Position numbers and translations under genes: made by a program. Positions 1-20,666 of a DNA stretch of 64,000 nucleotides are shown piece by piece. The notes beneath the pieces are model-generated. The model saw only the letters and a program-made list of their open reading frames with translations. It was not told the DNA's origin and ran no database searches. Each line of letters begins with the position of its first letter. Position 1 is the first letter of the stretch. The DNA comes from Planctomycetia bacterium (GTDB taxonomy: Bacteria > Planctomycetota > Phycisphaerae > UBA1845 > UTPLA1): contig JABTTW010000003.1 of the NCBI GenBank assembly GCA_015075745.1, positions 1 through 64,000 of the forward strand. Direction: 5' to 3'.

Positions 1-332
1 TTTGCGAAAGCGATCCGGCCTGTGACGATTGCAACGAGAACGGGATTCCCGACGGCTGCGACATCGCCGCAGAGATTAGCGAGGACACCGACACCAACGG
101 CATCCCCGACGAGTGTGAAGGCGAAAGCCTTATGGGCGGCGGTGGCGAATCGATGATGTCGTCCTCCGAAAGCAGTGAATCTGACTGGTCGGAAGAAGCC
201 GCATGGGAGGCGTTCTACGAGTGGTCAGCCACTCAGTGTTGGGGCCAAGGCTGTGAAGCCGGCATGGACGCGCAGTTTGCGGCCATGATCGATACGTTAC
301 GAGAACTTGGCTTGCCCGCGCAGAAGCCCTGA
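1..332 (+). CDS. C-terminal end of a secreted Ca-binding-repeat protein (5' partial)
   Basis: The reading frame is open from base 3 and ends at a TGA-terminated Ala-Gln-Lys-Pro tail, so this is the 3' end of a gene that starts outside the window. The visible part begins with two D-x-N-x-NGIPD(G/E)C units with paired cysteines, a repeat seen in large secreted planctomycete proteins and resembling calcium-binding loops. A Gly/Ser/Glu-rich linker and a roughly 50-residue helical tail follow. The function of the whole protein cannot be judged from this end. An internal ATG at 132 would cut through the repeat and is not a credible start. A strong terminator lies 34 bases downstream. Confidence 0.7.
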   Translation, partial: CESDPACDDCNENGIPDGCDIAAEISEDTDTNGIPDECEGESLMGGGGESMMSSSESSESDWSEEAAWEAFYEWSATQCWGQGCEAGMDAQFAAMIDTLRELGLPAQKP

Positions 333-365
333 TCAGGCAATAGACATTGTTAAATGTCGAACAAG

Positions 366-396
366 GCGGGCCCGTCTGTTCTACGGACGGGCCCGC
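366..396 (+). terminator. Strong GC-rich hairpin terminator
   Basis: An 11-bp perfect stem (366-376 with 386-396) can be extended inward by three more pairs, including one G-T wobble, to leave a three-base loop. A weak T-containing stretch follows. It sits just after the first gene and separates it from the Qat operon. Confidence 0.65.
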
Positions 397-634
397 TAAC
401 TTTCAGTGACGGAGGAGTGGACACACAACGTCACAAGATCCCGCATTATGGAGATCATCCACTATTCTATAGGCGCAGTCTCATGCCGTCAGGTACATGC
501 CTTCCGGGCAGTTTCCAATGCCCCTAACTTTTCTTTGCTAGCGGCCAGTCCGACCACCGAGTAGTTGGCTTCCCATGAATTCTGGTGGACAATGCCCGTC
601 ATGAGGCAGAGCTCCAAGGATTGGATGAATTCCC
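397..634. other. Upstream region of the Qat operon, no gene seen
   Basis: No convincing coding sequence lies between the terminator and qatA; the open frames here lack homology-like composition or a ribosome site. The qatA promoter should be in this stretch. It is visibly more AT-rich than the housekeeping part of the window. Confidence 0.4.
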
Positions 635-2539
635 ATGTGGTCGGATAACGAAACGTCGGTAGACTTTCTGGGCTTTCAGCATCTCGTCGCGGGACTGACA
701 ACCATAGTCGCAAACGACTCCCTTTTGCCAGCGACCATCGGCGTATTCGGCGATTGGGGCAGTGGCAAGTCAAGCCTACTTCAGATTGCAGCCGAGGAGC
801 TTCGCAAGAATCCGGAGATGCTTGTCCTGACGTTCAACGGTTGGCTCTTCGAGGGCTATGGCGACGCAAAAGCCGCTCTTATGGGCAACATCTTGGATGC
901 CCTTGCCGAAGACGAAACGCTCGAATCCGAGGCCAAGGGATTGGCACTCAAGCTTCTCAAGCGAGTCAATTGGTGGCGTGTCGCCGGAACCGTCACCAAG
1001 GCGGGAATTGGCATGGCACTCGCTGGCCCGGCCGGCCTCGGTTTGGCGTTGGGAACCGACCTCGCCACGGCTAGTAAGGACCTCATGAAGAAAGCGGCCG
1101 ACCTTAAGGAGGAAGACCTTACCAGGTACTTGCGTGAGAGCACCGACCACGAAGAGCGGCGAAGTATCCGTGAGTTCCGCGATGACTTCGCCAAGCTGCT
1201 CGCCCAAACAAAGCGAAAACAGCTTGTCGTCATAATTGATGACCTCGACAGATGCTTGCCGGAGACAATCATTGAGACCCTGGAGGCAATAAAGCTCTTC
1301 CTCTTCGTGCCGCGCACCGCGTTCGTTATCGGTGCCGATGAGAGACTCGTTCAGTACGCCGTGAGACGACGCTTTCCCGAGCTTCCCGGGGAACGAGCGA
1401 ATGTTGGCCGCGATTACCTGGAAAAGCTCGTTCAGTTCCCGATTCGAATTCCTCCGCTCGGAAGAACCGAGACCGAGAGGTTCATTAGTCTGCTACTGGC
1501 CTCGCAGGCTGATATCGAAGTCAAAACATTCGAATCGCTTCGCCAAGCAGCAGTCGGATGCGACCCCAAGTCGTTGCACAGCGTACGGTTTAGCCAAGAT
1601 GTCGCAGCAAAGGTCCTACCGACCATCCCGGAAGACGTTGCGAGTCGGCTGTCGTTGGCAGAGAGAATAGCACCCGTTCTCGCCGCAGAGACCGTCGGGA
1701 ATCCACGCCAGTGTAAACGATTCCTGAACATGTTGAGCATTCGACTTGGTATGGCCGGTGCACGTGGAGTCAAAGACCTGCAACCGCGAATCCTCGCGAA
1801 GCTCATGCTCCTTGAATACTACCGCCCCGAATCGTTTAAGCAGCTAGCCGCAGCACAGGCCGACTCAGAGGGCCGCCCGATTGCACTCGCAGAAGCTGAG
1901 AAACTTAACAGGGCTGCGGTGGTTGCCCACACAAAAGCACCATCGACGAATGCGAAAACGAAACGGGATGATGATGATATACAGGATACGGAGCCGAACC
2001 TACCACTTTGGCTTCTGGACCCGTGGGTTACACGCTGGGTGAAAATGGAGCCAGAACTTGCCGGCGAGGACCTACGCCCATACTTCTACTTCTCTCGCGA
2101 TATTCTGGGGCCGATGGGGGCTGTCGCACAACGAATGAGCCCGGCGGCACAAGAAGCCTTTACACGCCTTCTGAGCCGCAGTGCAGCAGAACGCGGGAAC
2201 GGTATGAAGCGAGCACCCGACTTGTCGCCGGCTGACGCAAGTGCCGTTTTTGAGGGCCTTGCCCAACGAGTCCGTGAGGAGGATGACCACTCCGATGAGG
2301 CCGCGACGATGCCCACTCTTCTCGAATGGACTAAGACTCGACCTGAACTGGCCGGACAACTGGCCGCATTGCTCGCGACCATCCCAGAGGAGAGTATCCC
2401 GCCGGCAACACCTATGAAGCTCATTTCGTTAGGTGCTGCTCACAACACCCCCGTTGGCAAGCTGTTTGAGCAATGGGCGAACAGTAAGAGCGAGAAGCTA
2501 AAGGCTGCGACGATAGCTGCCATGAAGCGACCACGATAG
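635..2539 (+). CDS. qatA: QatA, KAP-family P-loop ATPase of the QatABCD anti-phage system
   Basis: The 634-residue protein carries a KAP NTPase domain. The Walker A motif GDWGSGKSS is near residues 40-48. After a helical insert with a Gly/Ala-rich hydrophobic stretch (about residues 120-145), which is typical of KAP proteins, the Walker B region VVIIDDLDRC appears near residue 200, followed by an IGADERLVQYAV segment. The C-terminal third is helical and of unknown role. In Qat systems this is the ATPase subunit, and all of qatA-D are present here in the usual order. The ATG at 635 has an AAGGA 14 bases upstream, a rather long spacing, but no better in-frame start exists. Family membership is firm; its mechanism in defence is not fully known. 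Confidence 0.9.
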   Translation: MWSDNETSVDFLGFQHLVAGLTTIVANDSLLPATIGVFGDWGSGKSSLLQIAAEELRKNPEMLVLTFNGWLFEGYGDAKAALMGNILDALAEDETLESEAKGLALKLLKRVNWWRVAGTVTKAGIGMALAGPAGLGLALGTDLATASKDLMKKAADLKEEDLTRYLRESTDHEERRSIREFRDDFAKLLAQTKRKQLVVIIDDLDRCLPETIIETLEAIKLFLFVPRTAFVIGADERLVQYAVRRRFPELPGERANVGRDYLEKLVQFPIRIPPLGRTETERFISLLLASQADIEVKTFESLRQAAVGCDPKSLHSVRFSQDVAAKVLPTIPEDVASRLSLAERIAPVLAAETVGNPRQCKRFLNMLSIRLGMAGARGVKDLQPRILAKLMLLEYYRPESFKQLAAAQADSEGRPIALAEAEKLNRAAVVAHTKAPSTNAKTKRDDDDIQDTEPNLPLWLLDPWVTRWVKMEPELAGEDLRPYFYFSRDILGPMGAVAQRMSPAAQEAFTRLLSRSAAERGNGMKRAPDLSPADASAVFEGLAQRVREEDDHSDEAATMPTLLEWTKTRPELAGQLAALLATIPEESIPPATPMKLISLGAAHNTPVGKLFEQWANSKSEKLKAATIAAMKRPR

Positions 2540-2550
2540 GGCGGAAACGA

Positions 2551-3459
2551 GTGGGAACATCAAGTTCATATGGAGGCCCCGGAGATAAGACGCCGCTACT
2601 TCCCGCATGGGCACTTCCGCCTGATGAGGTAAAACAACCTGCACCCGAAGTACCAGCACTGCCGTCTGACGCGACAGACTCCGACATTGACAATCCGACC
2701 GAGCCACCATCAGAAACCAAGCCTCCGGAGAACAACCCCCAAGACGAGATTCCCGGCACCAGCGTCACCGCACCTCCCTCTCGGGCGTGGAAATCGGCTC
2801 GCGGGAGATTCACCCGAGCACTATCGTCTCGAACCTCCTTAGGCTATCAACGAGCGGCCCGTGACTACGTGCGTGCCTCAAGAGCCTCTGGCCGAGCCGC
2901 CGCCGGGGCGATTGCAGGCAGGCGAGCCGTTGCCGCTCTGGGCGGATTCTTCTCGTCGGCAGCGTCCCAGGGCTTGGGGGCTGCTCTCGCTAGCCTTGGT
3001 CTCGCACGAGTTGTCGGAAGGGATGTAAACGAAGTCCTCGCCGCAATTGTTAATGCACTAACGCCAGACGGAGTTACAAAAGAGGAGGTTGCCGCACGAA
3101 AGGCCGTTAGCGATACGCTCGAAAGACTCTACGAGCGTTTTATCGATGAAGGCAGAGACCTATCTGCACTTGAGTCGATGACTCGCGAAGACGCGGCAGA
3201 CGCAATCGCATCCTGCGTCGAAGCATACATCTTCAACCGCTGGCTAGGCGACCTTGGACTAAAGATTGAGGAACGAGCTGTATCCGCGTCGGAAGCAGTT
3301 ACCCTAGAGAGGGAAATTCGAGAGTTCATTCATGCCACGGTCACACTGGACCTGACCAACATAAATGTGTTGACGCTCGATTGGGGTGGGGAGCAAGGCC
3401 GGTCATTTGTTGAGAACATTTATCGCGATGCATACTCGCTCTTTGGAGGTGAAGCGTGA
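2551..3459 (+). CDS. qatB: QatB
   Basis: A 302-residue protein with a GTG start 11 bases after qatA. The N-terminus begins M-G-T-S-S-S-Y followed by GGPGDKTPLLP, the characteristic QatB opening, so this start is well supported. A Pro/Glu-rich, probably disordered linker (about residues 25-90) follows, then an Ala/Gly-rich helical region (about 110-160) and a helical C-terminal domain. I recall recent work on QueC-like defence enzymes describing attachment of a 7-deazaguanine base to the N-terminal glycine of a partner protein; the conserved Gly2 here would suit such a substrate, but that is inference. The stop codon overlaps the qatC start. Confidence 0.85.
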   Translation: MGTSSSYGGPGDKTPLLPAWALPPDEVKQPAPEVPALPSDATDSDIDNPTEPPSETKPPENNPQDEIPGTSVTAPPSRAWKSARGRFTRALSSRTSLGYQRAARDYVRASRASGRAAAGAIAGRRAVAALGGFFSSAASQGLGAALASLGLARVVGRDVNEVLAAIVNALTPDGVTKEEVAARKAVSDTLERLYERFIDEGRDLSALESMTREDAADAIASCVEAYIFNRWLGDLGLKIEERAVSASEAVTLEREIREFIHATVTLDLTNINVLTLDWGGEQGRSFVENIYRDAYSLFGGEA

Positions 3460-4757
3460 CTTGGCATGTAATCACGCTAGTCGGTGAAGCCGACGAATAC
3501 TCTCCCGCACTAAACGCTGCCGCGCCTCGGCTCGTTACCGCGTTCGAACGCCCCACACACCCACACCGAGTTCCCAATGACGTGCTCGCCGTGCTCCGAG
3601 CCGCCCTAGCCGTAAGCCCGCCCGCCCATGCGATGGACTTACTCTACCTTGCAATGACTGTTTACTCTGCCGACCTGAGAGTCAACCGCATTCACGGCAC
3701 AGACAGATGGTGCCGCGACTTCGTCTTACATCTGCCGGTCACCAACGTGGACCGGTGGCGGCACGCTCAAGAAATCCTTATTCGTATGCTCCAATTCTTG
3801 ACCGGAGACCGGTGGCAGGTCGAGTTACGCCCGAGGCAGGTCGCAGACGAGTCCGAACACTCCGCCGAGCACCCCGTTGACGTCGTCAGTCTGTTTTCGG
3901 GAGGGCTCGATTCGCTTGTGGGTGCCATTGACCTGCTAGCATCCGAGAAGACAGTTGCCCTTGTGGGTCACCACGGGGCGGGAATGACCAACGCCATTCA
4001 GGCCGACGTGCTCGCCCGCCTTGAAGAGTTCTACGCGGGCTCGTTCTCCCCATACATGTTCTTTGTTCAGCCATCCAGTTCGGGACAAGACGATGGCGAG
4101 AAGAGCACCCGTTCTCGCTCGCTTCTGTTTCTTGCACTTGGAGTCGCTCTTAGCCAGTCGCTGAGCACGTCGCCCCCTCTCTTCGTTGCAGAAAACGGTT
4201 TGATTTCCTTGAATGTTCCTTTGGTCCCGTCACGTGATGGTAGCTCAAGCACACGCACCACACATCCACATTTCCTCAGCACATACGCAGAGTTCTTGTC
4301 GGCCATCGACCTAACCACGCCCATCGAGGCCCCCTACCGCTTCAAAACCAAGGGAGAGATGCTCAGTGGCTGTCGTTCAGTCGATGCTTTGCGAGCCTGT
4401 GCACCGCTGAGCATGTCTTGCTCGCATCCGGAATCCGGCCGATTTGGAAAAAACTCGCCACGGAATCACTGCGGTTATTGTGTCCCGTGCATCATTAGGC
4501 GTGCATCGTTGCAAGCCGCAGGGTTTCCGCACACTAAGTACAACATCGACGTAGTGACTTCACCACCGAAAGCGAGCTCCAAAACGGGGAGTGACCTCCG
4601 TGCGTTTAGCATCGCCCTGGAACGACTCCGCACCGTTCGGCCGTCGCGATACTTGTTCGATATCCTCGGAACAGGCCCAATACCGCCGTCGGATGCTGCG
4701 AATTACGCCGACGTTTATCGTCGCGGAATGGAAGAGGTGGGGGCATTGCTGAGATGA
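3456..4757 (+). CDS. qatC: QatC, QueC-like ATP-dependent enzyme
   Basis: A 433-residue protein related to QueC, the ATP-dependent enzyme that makes 7-cyano-7-deazaguanine. The PP-loop signature FSGGLDSLVGA is near residues 148-158. A four-cysteine zinc site is near residues 325-350 (one Cys, then CGYCVPC). It is much longer than a housekeeping QueC (about 230 residues) because of an extra N-terminal domain of about 140 residues, as is usual for QatC. The GTG start forms a GTGA overlap with the qatB stop, with a GGAGG ribosome site 6 bases upstream. No other queuosine genes are nearby, so a defence role is far more likely than tRNA modification. Confidence 0.9.
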   Translation: MTWHVITLVGEADEYSPALNAAAPRLVTAFERPTHPHRVPNDVLAVLRAALAVSPPAHAMDLLYLAMTVYSADLRVNRIHGTDRWCRDFVLHLPVTNVDRWRHAQEILIRMLQFLTGDRWQVELRPRQVADESEHSAEHPVDVVSLFSGGLDSLVGAIDLLASEKTVALVGHHGAGMTNAIQADVLARLEEFYAGSFSPYMFFVQPSSSGQDDGEKSTRSRSLLFLALGVALSQSLSTSPPLFVAENGLISLNVPLVPSRDGSSSTRTTHPHFLSTYAEFLSAIDLTTPIEAPYRFKTKGEMLSGCRSVDALRACAPLSMSCSHPESGRFGKNSPRNHCGYCVPCIIRRASLQAAGFPHTKYNIDVVTSPPKASSKTGSDLRAFSIALERLRTVRPSRYLFDILGTGPIPPSDAANYADVYRRGMEEVGALLR

Positions 4758-5503
4758 GTGGCATGCAATCCGAATTGGCGATTCTTGATGCTCATTGCCA
4801 CATTGACTTGTATGACGACCCTCGTACGGTTGTGGCAATGGCTGAGCAGATGCACATTCACACGATTGCTGTCACGAACGCTCCTTCCGTCTTTTTCTAT
4901 ACGCGGGATCTGACTCAGGAGTGTCAGTTCGTTCGTGCCGCTGCGGGCTTTCATCCTGAACTGGTCTATTCCCGCCGGGCAGAGCTTCACCAGTTGTGGC
5001 CATTACTCGAATCAACACGATATATCGGAGAGGTTGGCCTTGATTACGTAACGTCGGACCATGCAGACCGCACGTTTCAGCGGAAAGTATTTAGCGAAAT
5101 TGTTGAGAGGTGTGCGAGTCTCGGCGACAAGGTGCTCACAATTCACTCGCGTCGAGCTGCCGCCGACGTTATCGCGACATTGGGCAATTTTCCGGGAAAG
5201 GCGATTCTTCATTGGTTCAGCGGAACGCTATCACAACTAAAGGCGGCGGCGGATGTTGGCTGCTACTTTTCGGTTAACCCTGCCATGGTTCTATCCGCCA
5301 GTGGACGGAAACTGATTTCCGCAATGCCTAAGGTCCGCGTCTTGACCGAGACAGACGGCCCCTTTGTCCAGGTGGACTCGCGACCTGCCGAGCCGCCCGA
5401 TACGGGGGCGGTCGTGTTCGAGTTAGGCCGACTGTGGAACATCGATCCCAAAGAGGCACGTTCAGTCGTCGCCGAGAATTCTCGAGGTCTGCTGGCCCCC
5501 TAA
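4754..5503 (+). CDS. qatD: QatD, TatD-like metal-dependent nuclease
   Basis: A 249-residue TatD-family hydrolase. Metal-binding motifs are in order: LDAHCHID near the N-terminus, GEVGLDY near residue 95, IHSRRA near 133, LHWFSG near 155 and ETDGPF near 200. All the expected metal ligands appear present, so it should be an active DNase-like enzyme. The start forms an ATGA overlap with the qatC stop, so the four qat genes are translationally coupled. An inverted repeat lies 24 bases downstream. As an isolated gene it could be housekeeping TatD, but the context makes QatD clear. Confidence 0.9.
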   Translation: MSGMQSELAILDAHCHIDLYDDPRTVVAMAEQMHIHTIAVTNAPSVFFYTRDLTQECQFVRAAAGFHPELVYSRRAELHQLWPLLESTRYIGEVGLDYVTSDHADRTFQRKVFSEIVERCASLGDKVLTIHSRRAAADVIATLGNFPGKAILHWFSGTLSQLKAAADVGCYFSVNPAMVLSASGRKLISAMPKVRVLTETDGPFVQVDSRPAEPPDTGAVVFELGRLWNIDPKEARSVVAENSRGLLAP

Positions 5504-5526
5504 CGAATCGTTGACGACCTTCGTAA

Positions 5527-5552
5527 TGCATGATAGAGGACGTTATCATGCA
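5527..5552 (+). terminator. Inverted repeat after qatD, possible terminator
   Basis: A perfect 9-bp stem (5527-5535 with 5544-5552) encloses an 8-base loop just after the Qat operon. No T-run follows, so intrinsic termination is uncertain; it could instead be a protein-binding palindrome. Confidence 0.4.
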
Positions 5553-6022
5553 ATAAAGGGGTCTGTTTGAATGGACACTGAATACCAATTGGCAGGGTCG
5601 TCTATTAGGGAAGCCGCAGTCATGGGTTTACAACTGCGGATTTGGAAACTGGCGTATCGATGTTATGGAATTCGTCGCGTGGGCCAGGGCGTGTCGGGTG
5701 GATACTGTTGTTGCGATAAGGAAGGCGATGGCTTAGGGGCAGTTTGCAATCTTGATTCGTGTTATGGATGTACGCAACCCAGTCATCGCCAAAAACATAC
5801 CCGAAATAGCGAATCAGTGTCCGAACCAGCAGGCTAATATCGATCAGGAACCCCGGGGAAGTGCGGGTGGCAGCCAACTCGTATTATAGTCGACCGATCT
5901 AATCTTCCGGCTTTTTCAAGGGCGGACCCTTAATAGGAGTTGTCATTGGCCTCGAATTGAGCTGGGCTCGTGTAGCCGAATGCTGAGTGCAATCAGGGTG
6001 TTCGATGGATTAGGGCGATAAG
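5553..6022. other. 470-base gap between qatD and the 644-residue gene
   Basis: Short open frames exist on both strands (for example 5571-5837 and 5620-5877), but none has a ribosome site, compositional bias or a recognisable motif. The region is relatively AT-rich and probably contains the promoter of the next gene. Confidence 0.35.
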
Positions 6023-7957
6023 ATGAGTGACAATGCGATCGTCTCCATTCGAGATGTGATATCCGCAATCCTCAAACACGATCACTTCGTTGATGCACTT
6101 GTTACAGCTATGGACGCTGATCCAGCTGCGGTTCCCACAATTACCAGACGAGAATTGCATCGCCAGGACATTTTCCATGGATTGGTGGGACGTGTAGTCG
6201 ATTACGGACGTGGCCATCCACAACAAGCAGCCCTGAAGGCTCTCTTTGAAGATACCGGGATATCTGACGAGGGAGTTTTTGACGCGGTGGAATTCGTTTC
6301 TTCATGCCTCATAAACCATTTCAAGGGAGAAATTGCTGAACTCTTGGCACGCCCACTACTCCATCAATTCGCTTTGCACCTTTCCGAGAATGGTATTGCC
6401 CCTGCTGGTGCCGAACTGATTCTCGGACACGAAATCAGATCGAAACGACTGGACGGAAGTAGCGGGTGGCATAAGAGTGCTGATGCTATGCTACTTACCA
6501 CTACTGACCGATGGGCAACGTGGACCCCGCGTAGGCAGCGCACGCTCCCGTCAGGTCAGTCAATAATCGTTGGACTTGCCGAGATCAAAGCATATCGGCA
6601 GAAGCCTAATAAGTTGTTTGATCAGCTTGCTAATCACGCCAACCGTTTTCAGCGTGGCATGCTGCTTCGAGGCATTGACTGCGATCTTACTGCGACATTC
6701 ATAGCACAGTCAGTGGATTCGCTGACTGCCGACTGTGTTCCATTGACGTCGTCGTATGACGCCCGGGGAGTCTCACGGCTGGCTATTCTGCCGAGAGTCA
6801 CCACCCGCGAGGAGCAATTGATGCACAGATTCGGCCCCAATGCTTGGATATCTGAACTTCCGTTTACTAGCCAAGAAATGCTGGAGGCAGCGTACCGGTT
6901 TTCAATTTGGCTCGCTTGTCTTCTTGGCACAAATGACTTTGGAGTTTCGTTAGCGACGAATACTGCTGAGTCACATGCCCAATTACGCGAGGCGACTCTT
7001 CAAGGAGGGCTACAGGATCGATTTCTCGAAGTGCTTTATCACCTCTGTCATAGAAAGTCAGTCGCAAATGCTAATCCTGAACATTCAGGCAAACTCAGCA
7101 AACTCTACAGGCTCTACAACTCCTTCTCATACGGCCGTCGGCGGGCAGTCGGCTCTCGAATGCAATGGCCTGACGAACACCCGGAATTGCCGCGGGCTGA
7201 GTCGATGTCTGTGTCAGAAATCGCTCAAGACCCTGTTTCGGCGGCAACCGCACAGTGTCTTTTCGACAGCGCTACAGCCTATGGGCACGGCAATCTTCGC
7301 AAGGCACAAGAACTCTTGGAGATGGCGAAGTTGGCAGGCACGCCACCGGCCGTTGGCCGTAAACTGGCCTGGTTGGAGAGTATGATCGCATACCGCGATG
7401 GTCGATTCGCCGTTGCATTAGAGTTATTTCCCGGCCCAAATTCTGACAAAAATCAATTCTGGTGGCCGCGAGATCAGCTGATGTGGGCACGGTTGCATGC
7501 CAGGGCGTGCAATGCCATGACGGCACGAACACTCCTTACTCAGCTCGAACCGCTAGGTCAATGGCCGATCCGAGCGTTGCCAATAGAATATTTCGGTGTA
7601 TCAGCCCTTACATTTCTCGCAGGTCGCGAAAACGAAAGCGCGAAAGGTGAGGCAGATCGGGGAATCGAGATTCTCGAAGCTTTTCGCTATGAGGTTCGAG
7701 AGCGACAATCCAGTGGTCTCGGCGAGCCCGTAAACATTCACACGCAAGTCGTGCAAATGGGAGTATTCGACTTGGTTGCTGTATTAGTCAGGGCACAGCG
7801 AGCTGAAGAAGCCGTTAATCATCTAGTCCAACTCAGTGGCTTTGACGGATGGGAAATTCCGTACTTGATTCGTGACGAACTGTTGGCTGAACTCTTCAAT
7901 AACATCAAGCGTTTCCCAAAGCTTCTTGCTTGGGTTTCGAAGACGAAGGCTTGGTAA
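6023..7957 (+). CDS. Unrecognised protein with PD-(D/E)XK-like signature, putative defence nuclease
   Basis: A 644-residue protein of no family I recognise. The first 130 residues are helical. A candidate nuclease core follows: Asp154 in SADAML, then a strand with Glu187-Ile-Lys189 in VGLAEIKAY, followed by a helix of the form QLANHANRF. This D...ExK order with a downstream Gln/Arg helix is typical of PD-(D/E)XK nucleases. The C-terminal half (about residues 400-640) is helical and resembles TPR-like repeats, with phrases such as LRKAQELLEMAKLAG. It stands alone on the plus strand between the Qat operon and a decayed defence region. The ribosome site is weak, and the start was taken at the first ATG. 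The nuclease assignment is inference from spacing and motif only. Confidence 0.6.
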   Translation: MSDNAIVSIRDVISAILKHDHFVDALVTAMDADPAAVPTITRRELHRQDIFHGLVGRVVDYGRGHPQQAALKALFEDTGISDEGVFDAVEFVSSCLINHFKGEIAELLARPLLHQFALHLSENGIAPAGAELILGHEIRSKRLDGSSGWHKSADAMLLTTTDRWATWTPRRQRTLPSGQSIIVGLAEIKAYRQKPNKLFDQLANHANRFQRGMLLRGIDCDLTATFIAQSVDSLTADCVPLTSSYDARGVSRLAILPRVTTREEQLMHRFGPNAWISELPFTSQEMLEAAYRFSIWLACLLGTNDFGVSLATNTAESHAQLREATLQGGLQDRFLEVLYHLCHRKSVANANPEHSGKLSKLYRLYNSFSYGRRRAVGSRMQWPDEHPELPRAESMSVSEIAQDPVSAATAQCLFDSATAYGHGNLRKAQELLEMAKLAGTPPAVGRKLAWLESMIAYRDGRFAVALELFPGPNSDKNQFWWPRDQLMWARLHARACNAMTARTLLTQLEPLGQWPIRALPIEYFGVSALTFLAGRENESAKGEADRGIEILEAFRYEVRERQSSGLGEPVNIHTQVVQMGVFDLVAVLVRAQRAEEAVNHLVQLSGFDGWEIPYLIRDELLAELFNNIKRFPKLLAWVSKTKAW

Positions 7958-8149
7958 CCGGATAACATCGAAACCGGGGAACGACAGTGGATCGTCTAAC
8001 AAAAGAACTATTGTGAGCTTCATGGTCTTGCACCGTCTTTGACATTAGCGTGGGACTCCTCGCGGAAAACGAGACGAAGGTGTTGCTCATGCAGGCATCT
8101 AAGGGGTGGCCAAAGCGGACTCGTCGTCTGCTGCAGATTGCAGGTGTTC

Positions 8150-8320
8150 TTAAAAAACGGTCAGCGCATGGTTTTCGATCTGCGACTTGATCTCTGTATT
8201 GATTGGCAGGTTCGGCCGTTTCAGCTCAACAAAGTGATGCTCTCGATCATCTGGTCGCGCTTGTGGGATGTGGCGCGACAGCATTAAATCTACGATTGGG
8301 TCTGGCGCATTTGTAATCCG
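8150..8320 (-). pseudogene. Remnant of a VELKRP-type nuclease-like C-terminal domain
   Basis: Reading the minus strand from 8320 gives about 55 residues containing DLMLSR, then HHFVELKRPN and a following QIENHA helix, ending at a TAA inside a T-run (8150-8157). This pattern (DLML..., VELKRP, QI..(Y/H)A) is what I know from the C-terminal domain of GHKL-type ATPases and similar defence proteins, where it looks like a PD-(D/E)XK fold. The frame is closed by a stop at 8321-8323 and has no start codon. It is therefore a gene fragment, perhaps with a frameshift in the T-run. No convincing coding signal was found in 7958-8149. Confidence 0.45.
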
Positions 8321-8775
8321 TCATTTTGTAGCTCCTCCGCCCGACGAAGCGAATGGCGCGCAAGCGTGGATAACTCGACCGCCGCACGTGATGGCTTGGG
8401 AGGGACGCCGGGCGGGGCTGGTCGGATTTCCTTCGGGTAGCAGCAAGAAGTTGCCGGCTGCGTCGGTAGGCTGGCCGGGCGGGCTGGCGAGGCGCGTATG
8501 AAACGCAGCGGTCGGCCGGCGGCTAGCGGACGAGCGCCCTCCTTGGGCTTCCGGCCGAATCGCAGCAACCAATCTCGGGCCGAAGCGGCATAGCCAAGCC
8601 CGGGCTTCTGGACCTGCAAGAGCATAGCGTTGAACGGTGCGAAGTTGCGAAGTCGAACTACGAAATCCAAGAGGTCCTTGTAGTCCTTACTATGCTTGTA
8701 GAGTCGAGACTCGGTGAGCAAATGATCCTGAAAGGATCGGGCGACTTCGGTTTCAAAAAGGGAAAACTTTTCCAT
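8290..8775 (-). pseudogene. Truncated ArdC-N-like protein
   Basis: The minus-strand frame from the ATG at 8775 encodes about 60 residues with the pattern LRNFAPFNAMLLQVQKPG and then RDWLLRFGRKPKEGARPL. This matches the N-terminal domain of ArdC-like proteins and related proteins that usually continue into an ImmA/IrrE-type metallopeptidase (general form: f.pfNa.l...Q.p...a....W...gR..k.ga). After GARPL the frame runs into Pro/Arg/Ala-rich sequence with no domain character, so the conserved part seems broken by a rearrangement or frameshift. It lies downstream of the five-gene operon on the same strand and may be a decayed former member or an unrelated remnant. An earlier ATG at 8844 adds unconvincing residues. 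Confidence 0.45.
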
Positions 8776-8885
8776 GGCGGCTCTTCGACTCCCGATTCGC
8801 CGCGCGAAACGAGTGATTCTGACTCGTCCCGCATCCACCCCCATGATGTGCCATTGGGCGAATGCGCGACTACGCGCAAACTGGG

Positions 8886-11585
8886 TTATTCGCCTGGCGC
8901 GAGCCCAACGAGCCGGCCCTTACCCTTGCGGTCGACATATTTAATCATTAACTCGGTCACATGGGGCAGATTCACAAAACCAGCGACCGCTGTTAGCTGG
9001 CCAGAATTGAATTGCCGAATTGCTCTCCAAAGTGTTTCCTTTATCCGCTTGGCAAGGTTCGACTCAGGGGCCATGTAGCTGTCGTCGCGGCGACGTCGGC
9101 GTAGCAGGTAAACGATGGATAAGCCTGCATGACGGTATAAGTACCTGGCGCTCCCTTCGTCGAGCTGCTGCTCAAGGTATCCCAAGCACTTCTCGGAAAT
9201 CGCAGCACATGTCGTCGAGGGAATCTCATCCGCCGCCTTCTCCCGATACTGGAGAATCCGACAAAGGGCTCGCATCCAGTCATTGGGAGCCCGGGGGGTT
9301 CCGCTTTGAAAGTTTGCATGCAGTGCCTTCGCAAATCTCACAATTTCTTTTGGATCGCGAAGACAATTGCCGATCGCGATCAGGTGATGATTGGCAATCC
9401 GACGGGGATTCCCAAGAAGCGATGACAAACGGCTGTGCAGCCCAGGGGTGTCCGCACTGCAATAGCCCAGTGCCCTGAAGATCCTGTCTTCGGCGGAAGC
9501 GAATCGTCCCGACTCGAGGAGATCGTCGAGTTTCGAAACGAACTCCGTGAGCAAAGTAGAGTCAAGGCAGGCCCCATCAAGGCAACCCTCCGACGAAACT
9601 GCGGTCGCATGGTCGGGGATTTGATGGCTCGAGTAGTCAGGGTCTTTGTCCCGAAGGACCGCGATCAGGTTCATGATTCGGTTCTCGAATTGACGCTCCC
9701 GTAATCGAGGGAGTTCATCCAAAAAGCCCTTGATTAGCGATCTTGCGCAGGGGAGTTGGTAAGTCCCTCCACCTCGCCAGGATGTGTAGCTGGCCAAGCG
9801 AGGATCAAGGGGAGGATTCGTCCTTTCCACATTCGCGAGTTCTTCTTCCCTGCTACGGCCGGTGTCGTGCGCGCGTGACCAGTCCAGGTGAACACGACGA
9901 CCGCCAAACGCGATACGAAGATCGGGAATGACCTCAATCCTGGGATTACCTTGACCCGCTGTTATTCTGATCTGCAGTTTGACAGGGGTGTCCGCGCGAA
10001 TCTGATTGGGGAACTCGACCCTTACTTCGCGAACCGAGTCATGTCCCTCACGCCAGACCGAGAGTGTGAGAAAATTTTCCTCCTGTCGGACTTTCAATCC
10101 CAAACCACTGAGCTCAAACACCTGTTCCTTGCCACCAACGACGTACGGATCCTCTAACCGCAAGATGTTCTCAAATGTAGGTTCACCTTCGCGCACGACG
10201 AGTAATTGGAGCTCGGGGAGGGCATCAAGATAAGATGGCAACCCAGACTGGCACTGCGATGCGTAGAAAGCCGCCCCACGACATAAGATTTCTCCGGAAC
10301 AATCGATCATACTCCTCGGCAAATTCGGTACCTCGGTGATCCGTCGCACCATTCGCTTCGACCAAGGCTCGCCTTCAACATCCAGGTCCGCGAATCCACC
10401 AGTTCCAATCATGCCGAGTATCGGCAGATTCGATTTTGTCATGCCTCGAAGCTCTTCCAGCCACTCATCAAATGAGGCGGCGGCGATTCTTCGCGCGAGT
10501 CGATCCTGAGCGTATGGCCCATCGAGAGGGGCAAAACGCTGACGAGACTTCGTGAGCTCACAGCGAGATTCGGCTGACCTTGACTTCTCTTGGGAAATCA
10601 GCCCGACTAGGTTTCTTGCGAGGTCTTTGCCAGCGTCGACAGCTCTCTCCCCGTGAATTCCTAAAAACGATTCTGAAACCAACAAATCCAGTTTCTTCAT
10701 CTTCGAGGGACATAGGACCTGGCGCAACCATCCCGTTGTCCACAAAAGATTCCAGGCGGTCCCCTCTGGATCGTCTGCATCTCGACATACCCCAAACGCC
10801 AGCTGTTCGGCCCAACTGATTCCTGCGTCGTATAAGCTAGGTAGCACCGGTAAACGACGTGCAGGCAGCAACACCTCAACGCCATCATGTTCCCAGGGGA
10901 TTAGCTCCAGTTCAGTGACTTCGAACGCGTCGAGCCCCATATGGACAGTCCATACCGTACCGACCGGCGTGAAACCCGACGAGGGACGATTGCGAGTTGC
11001 CTTCAGGATCTCAGGACCGTATTTCTGAACCCAGGTCAAGGCTCCGGCAATCGGTCGCCACAGAAGGCTGACATTCCGAAGTTCCAATCGCAGGGCTCGA
11101 AGTAACCGGTCCTGCGACTCGTGATCAAGGGTATTCGGCACGACCAAGCTGACCGTTGGCCGTCCCAACGACCCGGTTGTGGATTCAAGTGCTTTTTTGA
11201 CTGCTAAGACGATGGCATCCGTCGGTGCGCATGACGTTTCGCGGCGTTCAGACGCCTTCCATTTCCACTCCGGAGGGTCGCGGTGATCGAGCATCGGCCA
11301 GGCAAATGCCAGCGGGAAGCGGGCACTCCCCTTGGAGGGACTGAATCTGGAATTGGGGGGCCAGGCGAAACCAGCTCCACGAAGACTCGGCGGGGCTTGA
11401 AGGTCGATGACATTCGGCTCGCCCGCCAGTTCACCCAATACCAACGACGGCGGAATCTCCGGGCCGATCAAACCGACTTGATTCTGAGGATCACCCATCG
11501 GGTGTGCTGAGGCCGTTGCCACAGCAAAATCCCCTAGCGCAATCCCCACGCAGGTGTTTAGATCGTGGGCGTCTTTCCTGCTCAT
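8886..11585 (-). CDS. Hsp70-like NBD/SBD protein, last gene of CoCoNuT-like operon
   Basis: An 899-residue protein with a diverged actin/Hsp70-like ATPase layout. An N-terminal GIALGDF phosphate-loop-like motif is near residue 14. A SLVVPNTLDHESQDRLLRAL segment is near residues 144-163 and LLWRPIAGALTW near 174-185, equivalent to the Hsp70 segment that ends in EPTAAAL. Where DnaK has GIDLGTT, the Asp is replaced by Ala, so hydrolysis may be weak or absent. The last 300 residues are helical. The start overlaps the stop of the McrC-like gene by 4 bases. I recall Hsp70-like proteins with a degenerate substrate-binding part as companions of some CoCoNuT systems; the role proposed there, controlling effectors or sensing RNA, is unproven. 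Confidence 0.6.
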   Translation of the reverse strand: MSRKDAHDLNTCVGIALGDFAVATASAHPMGDPQNQVGLIGPEIPPSLVLGELAGEPNVIDLQAPPSLRGAGFAWPPNSRFSPSKGSARFPLAFAWPMLDHRDPPEWKWKASERRETSCAPTDAIVLAVKKALESTTGSLGRPTVSLVVPNTLDHESQDRLLRALRLELRNVSLLWRPIAGALTWVQKYGPEILKATRNRPSSGFTPVGTVWTVHMGLDAFEVTELELIPWEHDGVEVLLPARRLPVLPSLYDAGISWAEQLAFGVCRDADDPEGTAWNLLWTTGWLRQVLCPSKMKKLDLLVSESFLGIHGERAVDAGKDLARNLVGLISQEKSRSAESRCELTKSRQRFAPLDGPYAQDRLARRIAAASFDEWLEELRGMTKSNLPILGMIGTGGFADLDVEGEPWSKRMVRRITEVPNLPRSMIDCSGEILCRGAAFYASQCQSGLPSYLDALPELQLLVVREGEPTFENILRLEDPYVVGGKEQVFELSGLGLKVRQEENFLTLSVWREGHDSVREVRVEFPNQIRADTPVKLQIRITAGQGNPRIEVIPDLRIAFGGRRVHLDWSRAHDTGRSREEELANVERTNPPLDPRLASYTSWRGGGTYQLPCARSLIKGFLDELPRLRERQFENRIMNLIAVLRDKDPDYSSHQIPDHATAVSSEGCLDGACLDSTLLTEFVSKLDDLLESGRFASAEDRIFRALGYCSADTPGLHSRLSSLLGNPRRIANHHLIAIGNCLRDPKEIVRFAKALHANFQSGTPRAPNDWMRALCRILQYREKAADEIPSTTCAAISEKCLGYLEQQLDEGSARYLYRHAGLSIVYLLRRRRRDDSYMAPESNLAKRIKETLWRAIRQFNSGQLTAVAGFVNLPHVTELMIKYVDRKGKGRLVGLAPGE

Positions 11586-13294
11586 TCAAAGCTCCCGGAT
11601 TGAAGCCATGGCACTAACTGACCCAGAAGCCAATCCAAGTGTGCCGCGACGGGAATTGGGAGCTCGATGTTGACCATTGTCATTCCGAGATATGTGGCTC
11701 GGCCCTGCCTCGGAATCTGATCGTCATTACCATCTGAGGTACGCGGCACGATGAGGAGCGGAGTAATGCGAAGAGTCGTTGGCGAGAAAAGGGTTGAGGG
11801 GAGTGCCCGACCCCAATCCACAGAAACCGAATTCGGGTCGTCACCGAAGCCACGCAGTGATGTCCAGATTGCGAGAACGCGCACAGGCGAACGCCGGAGA
11901 GGGGACCGCACAATAATGAGAAGATCGCAACCCAAAGTGAGTAAGGGCTCTAATTCCGGGGAAAACGTGGTAGCGAGAGGTAACTGATCACCCTGAATTG
12001 CTTCAACAAGAAGCAATTCATTTCCCCGATAGATCCAGGTGCCAACCGATGAACGCGAATCGAAAAACCTCCCACAGTCGGGGTCGGATCTCAGAAGCAC
12101 ACGCCCTTCGTACCGAGGGCCGCCCTCCTGAAGACTGCTGAGAACGTGTAGGATTGAGAGCGAAACGTGCTCCGCCCAGGTTCGGTGTTGCCATCGCCAC
12201 ATCTCATCCTCGGAAAGTTGCTTGCGCCGTAGACGCTCGTACCAGTTCCAGATTTGTCCGTAGCGCTCGTCATATTGCAGGACGTAGTTGGCTCGTGGAA
12301 CTCCGGTAGGGAGTGGGACGCGCGAGATTTCGGAACGCGATAGCCAACTCTGCAGTAACGATCTAAAACGCAAGACGAGCAGAACGCGGTAGGGTCTTGA
12401 TACCGCGTTCTTGAGGTGGGATGCACACTCGTGAAGATATGCGTTACACTCGCGAAGACATCGCCGAAGAAAGTCATGTACGACACGGTTTTCCGGCGTA
12501 TCGGCAGTATCCTGTCGAATAACGCATAGGACTCTCTGCCGTGGGCCGGCCTTTTGGAGAATGGTCCGACCGGGTTGGCGCACAAACCATCGCAGGCAAG
12601 CCTCGTCCATTTGCTGGACGCGATCGAGCCGTTCTAGAGATCGAATTCGACGCAGGGCTTTTCGAGGGCGAGAGCAGATATCCTCCAAGGGGCCCCGACA
12701 CGCTTCGGCGATGCGCACAATCATGCGAAGCGGTCCGAGATCTTCCTTGTCGCGCAACCAAAAGAGCTGATCGAAATCGCTCCAGGCGCAGACGGTTAAG
12801 CCTTCAGCGCGCTGTGGGCGTCGCCCCCCTTTTTGTCGCGGAAAGGTGATCTCATTGATCGACTCGGCATGCTGGGAGATCAGCTCCGCTGCCTTGGCCC
12901 CAATTCCGTCTGATCCGAGGATTGGCATCGAACCCACGCCTACAGATTCTCCACTCTTCGAATCAAGTGGTCGCGGCACACCGCCACTCAGTAACGACTC
13001 GGCGTATTTTTCGACGCCATTGGCGTCAAAAAGAGACAGGGTGACGTGTTGAAAGGCGGGATCATCCTCGCTGCCCTTCGGCGACGGGAGTTCAAAACAG
13101 GAACACTGCTCGCTCCGCCAAACCAATGGCAGATTTGTCGGAGGAGGGGAGATTCTCACCTGCCTGATCGCGCTTGGGACAACCAAGAAGGGGCGTCCGA
13201 GGCACTGAGTTCCCGGGCTCAGAGTCTTCCAAGGGGCCCAGTTGTTGGGCAACGTATTGAGGTCGAGCGGTCTGTCTTGCGCCATCGCATTCAC
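11582..13294 (-). CDS. McrC/DUF2357-like protein, nuclease site apparently degenerate
   Basis: A 570-residue protein with a DUF2357-like layout. The N-terminal beta-rich part is followed by RPGRTILQKAG, DTADTPENRVVHDFL (about residues 237-275) and then the C-terminal region where McrC-type proteins carry a PD-(D/E)XK nuclease. The expected (D/E)xK strand appears as ELLLVEAIQGD near residue 440: Glu-Ala-Ile in place of Asp/Glu-Ala-Lys, so the catalytic Lys is missing. It directly follows the McrB-like gene with a 4-base overlap, the standard McrB-McrC pairing. It is probably the partner that stimulates or positions the McrB-like NTPase (CnuC in CoCoNuT terms). The alignment of the dead site was made by eye. 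Confidence 0.65.
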   Translation of the reverse strand: MNAMAQDRPLDLNTLPNNWAPWKTLSPGTQCLGRPFLVVPSAIRQVRISPPPTNLPLVWRSEQCSCFELPSPKGSEDDPAFQHVTLSLFDANGVEKYAESLLSGGVPRPLDSKSGESVGVGSMPILGSDGIGAKAAELISQHAESINEITFPRQKGGRRPQRAEGLTVCAWSDFDQLFWLRDKEDLGPLRMIVRIAEACRGPLEDICSRPRKALRRIRSLERLDRVQQMDEACLRWFVRQPGRTILQKAGPRQRVLCVIRQDTADTPENRVVHDFLRRCLRECNAYLHECASHLKNAVSRPYRVLLVLRFRSLLQSWLSRSEISRVPLPTGVPRANYVLQYDERYGQIWNWYERLRRKQLSEDEMWRWQHRTWAEHVSLSILHVLSSLQEGGPRYEGRVLLRSDPDCGRFFDSRSSVGTWIYRGNELLLVEAIQGDQLPLATTFSPELEPLLTLGCDLLIIVRSPLRRSPVRVLAIWTSLRGFGDDPNSVSVDWGRALPSTLFSPTTLRITPLLIVPRTSDGNDDQIPRQGRATYLGMTMVNIELPIPVAAHLDWLLGQLVPWLQSGSFE

Positions 13295-15330
13295 TCATCT
13301 TCGGATCGTTCAACGCCCAACCAGGTAAATAAGTGACCCCCTTCAGCTTTGGCTCCTTGATCAATTGCGCTGAGCAGCGGACCATCGCCAAGTCGGTCAA
13401 CAATTCGTCGGACCTCGTCAATCGCCCGGTGTCCGGCATCCTCCGCGACGTCAACCCCGCGAAGTTTGGGCAGGATCCTTTGCTCGATCTGATCAGCAAA
13501 GGGGATCTGAATCCCCTCTCGCGACTCTGGATGCTGTTGAACATAGGCCAAGATCGCGTCCCGCGTACGATAGCCAAAGGGCCGCCCTATCCGAGCAAGG
13601 ACATCGTTGAGTTCCTGAATCCACTCCAAGAGGGTGTTGCGCTCAGAAAGATCCTGCGACCGGGCGGAATCAATCCACCCGTCCCAAGTGTCGCGATGCA
13701 AGAACGATTCGGCTCGGAGGCGACGAGCATCCTCGGGGTGATTATCGTCTTGAGATCCCAAGATGGGAGGACGTCCAAATCGCATGACGTTCGCGCGATC
13801 GATGACCTTATCGGAGAGGGTCAATGTTGATTCATCTTCGTTCATCGTTCCGACGAAAAGAACATTGGTGTCAACAAAGACCCGCAAGTCGCCCTCGCGA
13901 ACAAACCGGCCGGCATCGAGGAGAATTTCCGCCTTTGACCGATCAGCAACTTCTTCCACGTTCATGATGTCTCTTCGCGTTTCCAAACGGCTCAAGAACT
14001 CGCTGAAGTAGTACTCGACCCGGGCCAGATTCATTTCGTCAAGGAGCACCATCAGCATCCTGTCGTCGATGAGCTGATCCCCAAGTTTTTTTTGGACCAG
14101 CTTGTGGTTGTATGCACTCATCTGCAGAAGCGCCCGAACCAATTCCGTGGCCTTGTAACGATTCTCCAAGTAATTGAAGAAGCCGATCAGGTCCTGGGGG
14201 CCATCCCATCGCGGCTGCACCGGGATATTCAGAAAATGAAATCCCATTGCCTCGGCGTAGCGGCGCGGAAGAAGACTTTTTCCGGTTCCGCTGATTCCAG
14301 CGAGCACCAGGAGTGGTGCGTCCTCGGCCACCTTCAGCGCGGTGTGGAAGCTGTTGACGGTTCTTCTCGAAAACTTGAGCCCCAGGGTCCGTAGGTACTC
14401 TCGTACGTTTGCGATCGCCTCATCTTCCGCGATTTCCTCGCCATCTCCCTCAGAAAATTCCTCGACATCGATGACCGGCTGCCACAGCTCAGACATAGCC
14501 TCTTCCTCAGTCGCGAGATTGCGATCCCGGACCTTTGTCTCTTGGCGAAGTTCGTCGAGTCGGGAGGAACTCTGCTCAATGCTCGTTTCGAGTGCCGCCT
14601 TCTTTTCCCTGAGCTGCGCCGCGGCGACCTTGATGGCGTTGGCCTCTTTCTCTAGCGAGTCTCTTGCTGACTTTACTTCGTCGCGGCGCTTGGTCAGGTC
14701 GGCGATTTCGCGTTGCAGAGATTCGAGCCGCTGCTGCTCCTTGGTAATGGCCTCTGCCAGCCCCGCGAGATTGCCTCGAGCAACTCCCAATCGAGACTCC
14801 GCGTCGGCTGCATCCTTTAAGAGCTTGTCCAGTCGCGTCTCCAACCGCTCGAGTTCTTTTTTCTTCCCTGAAATCTGCTCAGTCAAAGAACTGGCCTGTT
14901 CATTCAGTTGCAGTCGGGAAAACTCGGCCTTCTGGGCCTCGAGTGTCAGACTCTCTAATCGCTGTCGCGCATCGCCCAACTGTTCCAGTACCTGCTGAAG
15001 TTCCAAGCGGACCTGCTCAAGTTGCTCCCTCTCCTGCTTCATCTGTGCGATCTCGGCTCGATTCTGTTCCAGCCAGTCGCGTTCTCGTTGTGCTTCGTCA
15101 ATGATGAGCTTGGCCTGCTGCAATTCATCTCGGAGATGATCTCGTTCCGCTTCAAGATCGTGTACACGCTCACTGAGGTCTTCCCAGCGGACGGCTAGCG
15201 GGAGTCGCTCCTCCTTTCGAGCGTATTCGAGGGCACGTCGGTAATTGACAATAAAGGCCCACAGTGCGCACAAGAGAACAATGATCGTAGAGAGCACACC
15301 CACGAGATACGGATACAATAGTTCTGGCAT
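13291..15330 (-). CDS. McrB-like NTPase with N-terminal membrane segment and coiled coil
   Basis: A protein of about 679 residues. A hydrophobic segment (about residues 5-27, with STIIVLLCALWAFIV) is followed by about 240 residues of heptad-rich coiled coil. The NTPase domain then has Walker A GISGTGKS near 344, a Walker B/sensor block LLDEMNLARVEYYFSEFL near 428 and GTMNEDES near 491. DEMN...YYFSEFL and the TMN motif mark the McrB branch of AAA+ proteins, although the usual MNxxD is MNEDE here. Fusion of an McrB NTPase to a long coiled coil is the defining feature of CoCoNuT CnuB proteins. The ATG at 15330 has a GAGAG-like site; an earlier ATG at 15360 would overlap the upstream stop. Confidence 0.75.
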   Translation of the reverse strand: MPELLYPYLVGVLSTIIVLLCALWAFIVNYRRALEYARKEERLPLAVRWEDLSERVHDLEAERDHLRDELQQAKLIIDEAQRERDWLEQNRAEIAQMKQEREQLEQVRLELQQVLEQLGDARQRLESLTLEAQKAEFSRLQLNEQASSLTEQISGKKKELERLETRLDKLLKDAADAESRLGVARGNLAGLAEAITKEQQRLESLQREIADLTKRRDEVKSARDSLEKEANAIKVAAAQLREKKAALETSIEQSSSRLDELRQETKVRDRNLATEEEAMSELWQPVIDVEEFSEGDGEEIAEDEAIANVREYLRTLGLKFSRRTVNSFHTALKVAEDAPLLVLAGISGTGKSLLPRRYAEAMGFHFLNIPVQPRWDGPQDLIGFFNYLENRYKATELVRALLQMSAYNHKLVQKKLGDQLIDDRMLMVLLDEMNLARVEYYFSEFLSRLETRRDIMNVEEVADRSKAEILLDAGRFVREGDLRVFVDTNVLFVGTMNEDESTLTLSDKVIDRANVMRFGRPPILGSQDDNHPEDARRLRAESFLHRDTWDGWIDSARSQDLSERNTLLEWIQELNDVLARIGRPFGYRTRDAILAYVQQHPESREGIQIPFADQIEQRILPKLRGVDVAEDAGHRAIDEVRRIVDRLGDGPLLSAIDQGAKAEGGHLFTWLGVERSEDE

Positions 15331-15346
15331 GATCACTCTCGGATAA

Positions 15347-20213: not shown

Positions 20214-20666
20214 TAGCCACCCTCGCTTGGCGGAATACGTCCGATTACGCAGTTGCTGGGCTCTATTCGAGCTTCGCGCGATTCGGCAGCATTCTTGCGG
20301 CCCGACCACCCGGCGCGACGAAAAGCGTTTATCGAAACTCAATTGTACTAGGTCCGAGTGCCAAGCGAAACTGCACCGCGTGGGGGCCAAGTGGCGGCAA
20401 CAGGTCTATCCCTCACCTGGTCTCCATCAATGTTCAGGTAAAGGACCTGCATGAGCCGAACCAGTTCACCGGTGGTGATCAGATCCGCCGTCATGTTGCG
20501 TCCGATGAAGGTCACGAGCGCACCGGTTGTTCTCACCGCGTTCCTGTCCGGCATTATTCCCATCGTCTCGTCATTCGTCTCACGAATCTTCCTGATCGGC
20601 TTCGGCGAAGCGATGCTCGCGCTTGCGGGACATCGCAATCAAAACACATTGGATCGCGGAAAAACA
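20214..20666. other. Upstream region of the CoCoNuT-like operon
   Basis: About 450 bases without a supported gene. A 96-codon frame on the minus strand (20348-20638) has fairly protein-like composition after its second or third Met but no ribosome site, homology or coupling. The promoter of the helicase-first operon should lie here. Confidence 0.3.

What the first reader, a model, noticed from the sequence alone, without database searches (positions are those of the whole stretch)
6023..7957. Possible new defence protein: 644 residues with Asp154 and Glu187-x-Lys189
The protein belongs to no family I recognise, lies between a Qat operon and a second defence cluster, and has a D...ExK arrangement followed by a Gln/Arg helix, as in PD-(D/E)XK nucleases, plus a helical repeat-like C-terminus that could sense a target. 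It is the best candidate in the window for an undescribed single-gene system.
Basis: partly seen in the sequence, partly recalled or inferred. Interest (0 to 1): 0.72.

Follow-up and report, generated by a model that had tools for sequence, protein, structure and literature searches.

The report
Unnamed nuclease-like protein with TPR tail
A bacterial gene between two antiviral gene clusters encodes a protein from an unnamed family that looks like a DNA-cutting enzyme fused to a helical sensor arm, and is a good but untested candidate for a one-gene phage defence.

Summary
The 644-residue ORF at 6023-7957 is real, and no Pfam, PADLOC, NCBIfam or PHROGs model matches it. The D...ExK motif alone is at chance level (65% of shuffles have one). 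Relatives make it evidence: I found 14, in several phyla, down to 17% identity. Over 15 aligned sequences 14 columns are invariant; the charged or amide ones are exactly E106, D154, E187, K189 and Q201, the PD-(D/E)XK set. The AlphaFold2 model places them in the expected order, and residues 404-644 form a TPR-like solenoid. No solved structure or profile confirmed the nuclease fold, so it rests on motif and topology. Thirteen relatives are short (about 410 aa) and lack the TPR arm; only one Phycisphaerae relative shares it. Short forms are rare, up to 78% identical across phyla. One lies between two attC-like sites; others lie beside SIR2-HerA, HEC-07 with type I restriction, a terminase or an integrase; five of 11 have no such neighbour. 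Best reading: a stand-alone, horizontally moving PD-(D/E)XK-like nuclease, here with a TPR sensor, probably anti-phage. Activity is untested.

The parts
6023..7957 (+). whole gene, 644 aa, ATG start to stop
   Evidence: one copy in its genome; relative of the same architecture at 46% identity over 7-643
6023..6250 (+). N-terminal helical region, residues 1-76
   Evidence: AlphaFold2 model of the full protein, helices 9-17, 20-31, 40-63, 68-76
6269..6667 (+). PD-(D/E)XK-like core, residues 83-215: helix 83-108, strands between 131 and 160, strand 180-188, helix 195-211
   Evidence: model, pLDDT of the blocks mostly 80-93; invariant residues
6338..6340 (+). E106, invariant Glu of the first core helix
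   Evidence: invariant in 15 of 15 rows
6482..6484 (+). D154, catalytic Asp candidate, immediately before strand 155-160
   Evidence: invariant in 15 of 15 rows; model
6581..6589 (+). E187-I-K189, the ExK motif at the end of strand 180-188
   Evidence: E and K invariant in 15 of 15 rows; model
6623..6625 (+). Q201 in the helix after ExK
   Evidence: invariant in 15 of 15 rows
6668..6931 (+). residues 216-303: beta-rich part and helix 283-302, shared with the short relatives
   Evidence: alignment and model
6932..7231 (+). residues 304-403: low-confidence stretch between the two halves
   Evidence: pLDDT 32-57 in the blocks of 10 residues from 301 to 400
7232..7954 (+). residues 404-644: TPR-like helical solenoid, the probable sensor
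   Evidence: model helices; VIA-align Z about 11-13 to many TPR chains over 385-644; present only in this protein and L020
635..5503 (+). upstream neighbour: QatA (635-2539), QatB (2551-3459), QatC (3456-4757), QatD (4754-5503)
   Evidence: PADLOC and NCBIfam matches

Best explanation
The gene encodes a one-protein sensor-nuclease. An N-terminal module (residues about 1-303) is a PD-(D/E)XK-like, metal-dependent nuclease with E106, D154, E187, K189 and Q201 as its active-site set. A C-terminal TPR-like solenoid (404-644) is the likely sensing or regulatory arm. Most likely mechanism: the TPR arm holds the nuclease inactive until it binds a phage-made or infection-induced protein or peptide, and the nuclease then cuts DNA and stops the infection, possibly by killing the cell. 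Relatives without the TPR arm occur as solitary genes in distant bacteria, so the nuclease module probably works without a dedicated partner gene. Shown: the ORF, the family, the invariance of the motif, the predicted topology, the TPR-like fold, the sparse cross-phylum spread and the neighbourhoods. Inferred: nuclease activity, DNA as the target, TPR as sensor, anti-phage role.
For: Only 14 columns are invariant over 15 sequences; the charged or amide ones are exactly E106, D154, E187, K189 and Q201, although residues 9-268 hold 12 E, 19 D, 8 K, 11 Q, 5 N, 21 R and 12 H. The full-length model gives helix 83-108, strand 155-160 starting after D154, strand 180-188 ending in ExK and helix 195-211, the alpha-beta-beta-beta-alpha-beta order that I recall for the PD-(D/E)XK core. 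TPR: Z about 11-13, about 150-240 residues aligned within 367-644, against many TPR chains. Both halves are conserved against L020: 50% in 81-215 and 50% in 401-644. Context: Qat on one side, a DUF2357/AAA_5/helicase cluster on the other; relatives beside SIR2-HerA and beside HEC-07, an integrase and type I restriction with PrrC. Mobility: short forms 62-78% identical between loci labelled Planctomycetota, Deltaproteobacteria/Desulfobacterales, Firmicutes and Ca. Tariuqbacter; gene GC3 0.60 in L021, where three of five other ORFs have 0.27-0.46.
Against: No solved structure matched the nuclease half. The full-length searches filled with TPR hits, and the domain-only model (pLDDT 65.5) gave no meaningful match. 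No sequence or profile match to any PD-(D/E)XK family: Pfam none, PDB profile search none, hhalign to Mrr_cat and SduA_C below 1% probability and no better than a reversed control. Five of 11 relatives with readable flanks have no defence or mobile marker that I saw (L022, L023, L030, L013, L014), and in L023 the neighbour is housekeeping YebC. The TPR arm is known in only 2 of 15 sequences. No relative was found in the viral, phage or plasmid collections. No experiment shows activity.
Confidence: 0.6

Rival explanations
1. A stand-alone restriction-like nuclease that cuts foreign or modified DNA directly. The TPR arm serves for oligomerisation or positioning and not for sensing a phage protein.
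For: Thirteen of 14 relatives lack the TPR arm yet conserve the active-site set (one of them, L029, is frameshifted and was compared only up to its break). By eye no DNA methyltransferase is the direct neighbour of the short genes, as expected for a modification-dependent enzyme.
Against: No match to Mrr_cat or any other restriction family. No recognition domain identified.
Confidence: 0.2
2. A nuclease that serves mobile elements (integron, prophage or island competition or maintenance) and not the host's defence.
For: Relatives lie between attC-like sites, 0.6 kb from a phage terminase (L011) and near phage integrases (L012, L044).
Against: In the window and in L025 and L044 the company is defence genes. 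Defence genes themselves commonly ride on such elements (PMC12409362, passages).
Confidence: 0.15
3. A housekeeping DNA repair or RNA-processing nuclease.
For: Some relatives sit beside housekeeping genes (L022, L023).
Against: Very sparse: 6 of 397 genomes of the class sample, own included, absent from both same-genus genomes searched, and up to 78% identical between phyla.
Confidence: 0.05

Closest known systems
PD-(D/E)XK nuclease superfamily (general)
   Same: Invariant Glu in the first helix, Asp before a strand, ExK at the end of the next strand, Gln in the following helix; predicted order of elements
   Different: No detectable sequence or profile similarity to a named family, and no structural hit for this half
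Shedu (SduA, PF14082)
   Same: Single-gene defence protein with a PD-(D/E)XK effector (recalled)
   Different: No SduA_C match; hhalign below 1% probability, no better than the reversed control
Avs / STAND-type sensors with N-terminal nuclease and C-terminal TPR-like sensor (recalled)
   Same: Order nuclease first, TPR-like repeats last
   Different: No STAND NTPase: no Walker A motif and no NTPase model matched
Defence genes carried as integron cassettes (reviewed in PMC12409362, passages seen)
   Same: One short relative (L024) is a solitary ORF between two attC-like sites; compact single-gene unit
   Different: The window's own gene shows no attC-like site; no integron integrase above cut-off in the L024 genome
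Rap/NprR/AimR TPR receptors and LGN
   Same: Best fold matches of the C-terminal half
   Different: TPR solenoids match one another readily, so no shared function follows; those proteins carry no nuclease (recalled)

Membership tests
PD-(D/E)XK nuclease superfamily | conserved D and (E/D)xK catalytic residues | tested here: met
   D154, E187, K189 invariant in 15 of 15 sequences
PD-(D/E)XK nuclease superfamily | alpha-beta-beta-beta-alpha-beta core with D and ExK on neighbouring strands | tested here: inconclusive
   order of elements fits in the full-length model; domain-only model weak; no fold match; coordinates not available for distances
PD-(D/E)XK nuclease superfamily | profile similarity to a member family | tested here: inconclusive
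   none in Pfam or PDB sequences; hhalign to Mrr_cat and SduA_C negative; other families of the superfamily not compared
PD-(D/E)XK nuclease superfamily | metal-dependent nuclease activity | not testable with these tools
   needs a bench assay
TPR proteins | tandem antiparallel helix pairs forming a solenoid | tested here: met
   model helices 404-640; Z about 11-13 to TPR chains; sequence-level TPR hits only weak and below cut-off, in L003/L020
Shedu | SduA_C (PF14082) domain | tested here: not met
   no Pfam match to P0001; hhalign negative against 3 SduA_C rows
Avs | STAND NTPase domain | tested here: not met
   no Walker A motif; no NTPase model matched
Known anti-phage systems of PADLOC-DB 2.0.0 | match to a system model | tested here: not met
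   P0001: 0 families; 0 of 11 members of A5
Anti-phage defence gene | defence or mobile-element neighbourhood | tested here: inconclusive
   window: Qat and DUF2357/AAA_5 cluster; relatives: 6 of 11 with defence, mobile or attC-like markers, 5 of 11 without; selected neighbours only, no background rate measured
Anti-phage defence gene | protection against phage | not testable with these tools
   bench assay needed
Integron gene cassette (L024 relative) | flanking attC sites in direct orientation | tested here: inconclusive
   attC-like sites at L024 7801-7894 and from 9218; pattern occurs 2 times in the 5.5 Mb genome, 0 on the other strand, 0 for the reversed control; the second site has a degenerate 3' box, no attC model was available and no integrase passed its cut-off
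Integron gene cassette (window gene) | flanking attC sites | tested here: inconclusive
   no hit in window 1-20000, but the scan is home-made and of unknown sensitivity

The most novel reading that the evidence does not exclude
A previously unnamed PD-(D/E)XK-like nuclease family spreads between phyla as a compact single-gene unit, in at least one genome as an integron-type cassette. In Phycisphaerae it has become an NTPase-free, one-protein immune receptor by fusion to a TPR sensor.
Probability: 0.3. Interest if true: 0.7.

Novelty: new variant of a known kind. Interest (0 to 1): 0.52.

Why it matters
If right, it adds an undescribed nuclease family to the defence repertoire, with short and TPR-bearing forms that allow a direct test of what a TPR arm adds to a bare nuclease. 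Such a receptor would combine sensor and nuclease without the NTPase module of Avs-type receptors. It would also point to integron-type cassettes as a source of candidate defence nucleases in Planctomycetota and Desulfobacterota.

Tried and rejected
Motif alone as evidence: rejected, since 65% of shuffles have a D at 10-40 residues before an ExK. Known families: Pfam, PADLOC, NCBIfam and PHROGs gave nothing for P0001; PADLOC gave nothing and NCBIfam one chance-level hit at E 0.094 for the 11 members of A5. L010 was dropped as a false positive: by its translation it is a sigma-54-type regulator. Scans of viral contigs found no relative; phages and plasmids none; the first scan of genome contigs, with P0001 alone, none.

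Fold of the nuclease half: the domain-only model (residues 66-303) came out weak (pLDDT 65.5), with no useful fold match (best row PNP-oxidase at Z 2.7, rmsd 3.9, 75 aligned, which I take as noise). No PD-(D/E)XK chain appeared among the rows listed, which were TPR and similar repeat proteins or glycosyltransferases. hhalign against Mrr_cat (28 of 30 loci used; L057 and L074 left out) and SduA_C (3 of 7 loci; L076 and L078 dropped for stops at the assumed position, L080 and L081 not used) was negative; the first attempt had strand errors and is discarded.

attC sites: a first strict scan found none. The second, with separate outer and inner boxes, found one site in L024 (read on both strands) and none in the other 14 sequences scanned. 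Its folding energy is not unusual (z -0.44), although the predicted pairing is the attC pattern (the pattern itself is recalled). The second L024 site was noticed by eye, and the genome was then searched with a pattern that I derived from both sites, so that count is partly circular; the informative part is the absence of any third copy. L021 and L028 share 149 bp directly downstream of the gene (86%), but that stretch has no attC boxes that I could see. Integron integrase: none over the cut-off in G570; of 15 genomes only G217 and G327 have one, on contigs other than the family gene's. Rfam: no match in 8 loci.

Literature searched. I saw listings, and passages of PMC12409362 and PMC11090510; no paper was read whole. 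None of the listings named this family; that is not proof that it is unpublished.

Full report
Observation. The ORF 6023-7957 (+) codes for 644 residues from ATG, and the frame closes 9 bases upstream. It is single copy in a 5.0 Mb genome. D154, E187 and K189 are as described. Pfam, PADLOC, NCBIfam and PHROGs give no match. Upstream lie QatA, QatB, QatC and QatD (QatA scores 546 bits against an NCBIfam cut-off of 600, the other three pass theirs). Its GC3 of 0.49 is the lowest of 46 mechanically listed ORFs of the window, as one would expect of a recent arrival.

Relatives. A search of 200 genomes found 5 with a match, own included. The order gave 4 of 114, own included. A sample of the class gave 6 of 397, own included. 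A phylum sample, queried with a short relative, gave 4 of 392, own included and one of them (L010) a false positive. A phylum sample around G571 gave 3 of 297, all known already. With L008 and L041 that makes 14 distinct relatives. Both same-genus genomes searched lack it.

Two forms. All 13 rows of alignment A4 share the first 300 or so residues, as far as each row goes. Only P0001 and L020 continue into the TPR region; L020 is 46% identical over 7-643, with 50% in residues 81-215 and 50% in 401-644. The other 13 relatives are of about 400-425 aa, depending on the start chosen; one (L029) is broken by a frameshift and was compared only up to it.

Catalytic set. The D...ExK arrangement occurs in 65% of shuffles of P0001. 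Conservation is what counts: in 15 aligned sequences, down to 17% identity to P0001, the invariant residues are L17, F91, F100, G102, E106, L108, P127, G135, G145, D154, E187, K189, Q201 and G212. The charged or amide ones are exactly the helix Glu, the Asp, the ExK and the helix Gln that I recall as the PD-(D/E)XK signature.

Structure. The full-length model (pLDDT 75.4, pTM 0.58, 13 sequences) has the nuclease half mostly at block pLDDT 80-93, residues 301-400 low, and the C-terminal half mostly 71-95. Helix 83-108 carries E106; strand 155-160 begins right after D154; strand 180-188 runs into ExK; helix 195-211 carries Q201. Fold searches found TPR matches for 385-644 (Z about 11-13 to Rap, LGN, NprR, AimR and others) and nothing for the nuclease half. 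hhalign to Mrr_cat and SduA_C was negative. The fold assignment therefore rests on motif and predicted topology.

Neighbourhoods. Eleven of the 14 relatives have more than 6 kb to read (and for L044). Firm defence neighbours in two: L025, with SIR2 and HerA starting 0.47 kb downstream; and L044, with a HEC-07 homologue 0.86 kb away, a phage integrase, and HsdR, HsdS, PrrC and HsdM further on. A weaker case: L021, followed by an SMC/RecF-like ATPase of the same GC3 (0.59 against 0.60), while three of five other ORFs there have 0.27-0.46. Mobile-element markers in three more: a terminase in L011, a phage integrase in L012, attC-like sites in L024. No marker seen in L022, L023, L030, L013 and L014. 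Only selected neighbours were scanned with family libraries, and no background rate was measured, so this is a lead and not a statistic.

Mobility. The short forms are 62-78% identical among eight loci (L021-L025, L027, L028, L030) labelled Ca. Tariuqbacter, Deltaproteobacteria, Sedimentisphaerales, Planctomycetota, Desulfobacterales, Firmicutes, Phycisphaerae and an unnamed bacterium; L023, L027 and L028 lie on contigs under 7 kb, where misbinning is possible. In L024 the gene (7908-9179) lies between two attC-like sites in the same orientation (7801-7894 and from 9218). The first folds with outer CTAAC/GTTAG pairs, unpaired spacers, and an inner stem with one bulged base. The shared pattern occurs 2 times in the genome, both times here, with 0 on the reverse strand and 0 for the reversed control. 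L025, from another phylum, shares with L024 the 19 bases before the gene, starting at the TTAG of the attC boundary. L021 and L028 share 149 bp directly downstream and then diverge. These fit a compact single-gene unit. No integron integrase above cut-off was found in the L024 genome, and the window's own gene shows no attC-like site. Integron cassettes are known to carry defence genes: the review PMC12409362 reports at least 16 of 179 Vibrio cholerae cassettes with anti-phage activity (passages).

Mechanism. I take the protein to be an autoinhibited nuclease released by ligand binding to the TPR arm. The nuclease step is supported by the active-site set; the sensing step is inferred from architecture alone; the anti-phage role is inferred from context. 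The short forms must be controlled in another way.

Verdict. The defence role is a reasonable inference. The family appears undescribed in the libraries searched. It is a new variant of a known kind of protein, a stand-alone PD-(D/E)XK-like effector, and its interest depends on a phage assay.

Noticed in passing
window 8886-20390 (-): The second defence cluster fits the description of a Type III-B CoCoNuT (PMC11090510, passages): UPF1-like helicase with N-terminal winged helix and C-terminal Vsr-like nuclease (16746-20390), coiled-coil protein (15347-16786), coiled-coil AAA_5 protein (13291-15360), DUF2357 protein (11582-13294), and an 899-aa protein without Pfam match (8886-11585) in the place of CnuD..
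   Followed up: partly
window 8290-8844 (-): 184-aa ORF whose middle part resembles, by eye, an ArdC-type antirestriction domain; no Pfam match, possibly a remnant.
   Followed up: partly
L044:7008-8627 (-): HEC-07 homologue next to a short family member, followed by an integrase and type I restriction genes with a PrrC homologue: a defence island in a genome of the same class.
   Followed up: partly
L021:3120-3265 and L028:1957-2104: About 149 bp shared at 86% directly downstream of the family gene in two distant genomes, ending in a hairpin without attC boxes. What this unit is remains unexplained.
   Followed up: partly
L024:7078-7806 (+): DUF5677 gene upstream, whose end overlaps the first attC-like site (7801-7894): a possible neighbouring cassette.
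   Followed up: no
L029:7725-8981: Family member broken by a frameshift after about 280 codons; the rest of the family profile continues in another frame. Decay or assembly error.
   Followed up: no
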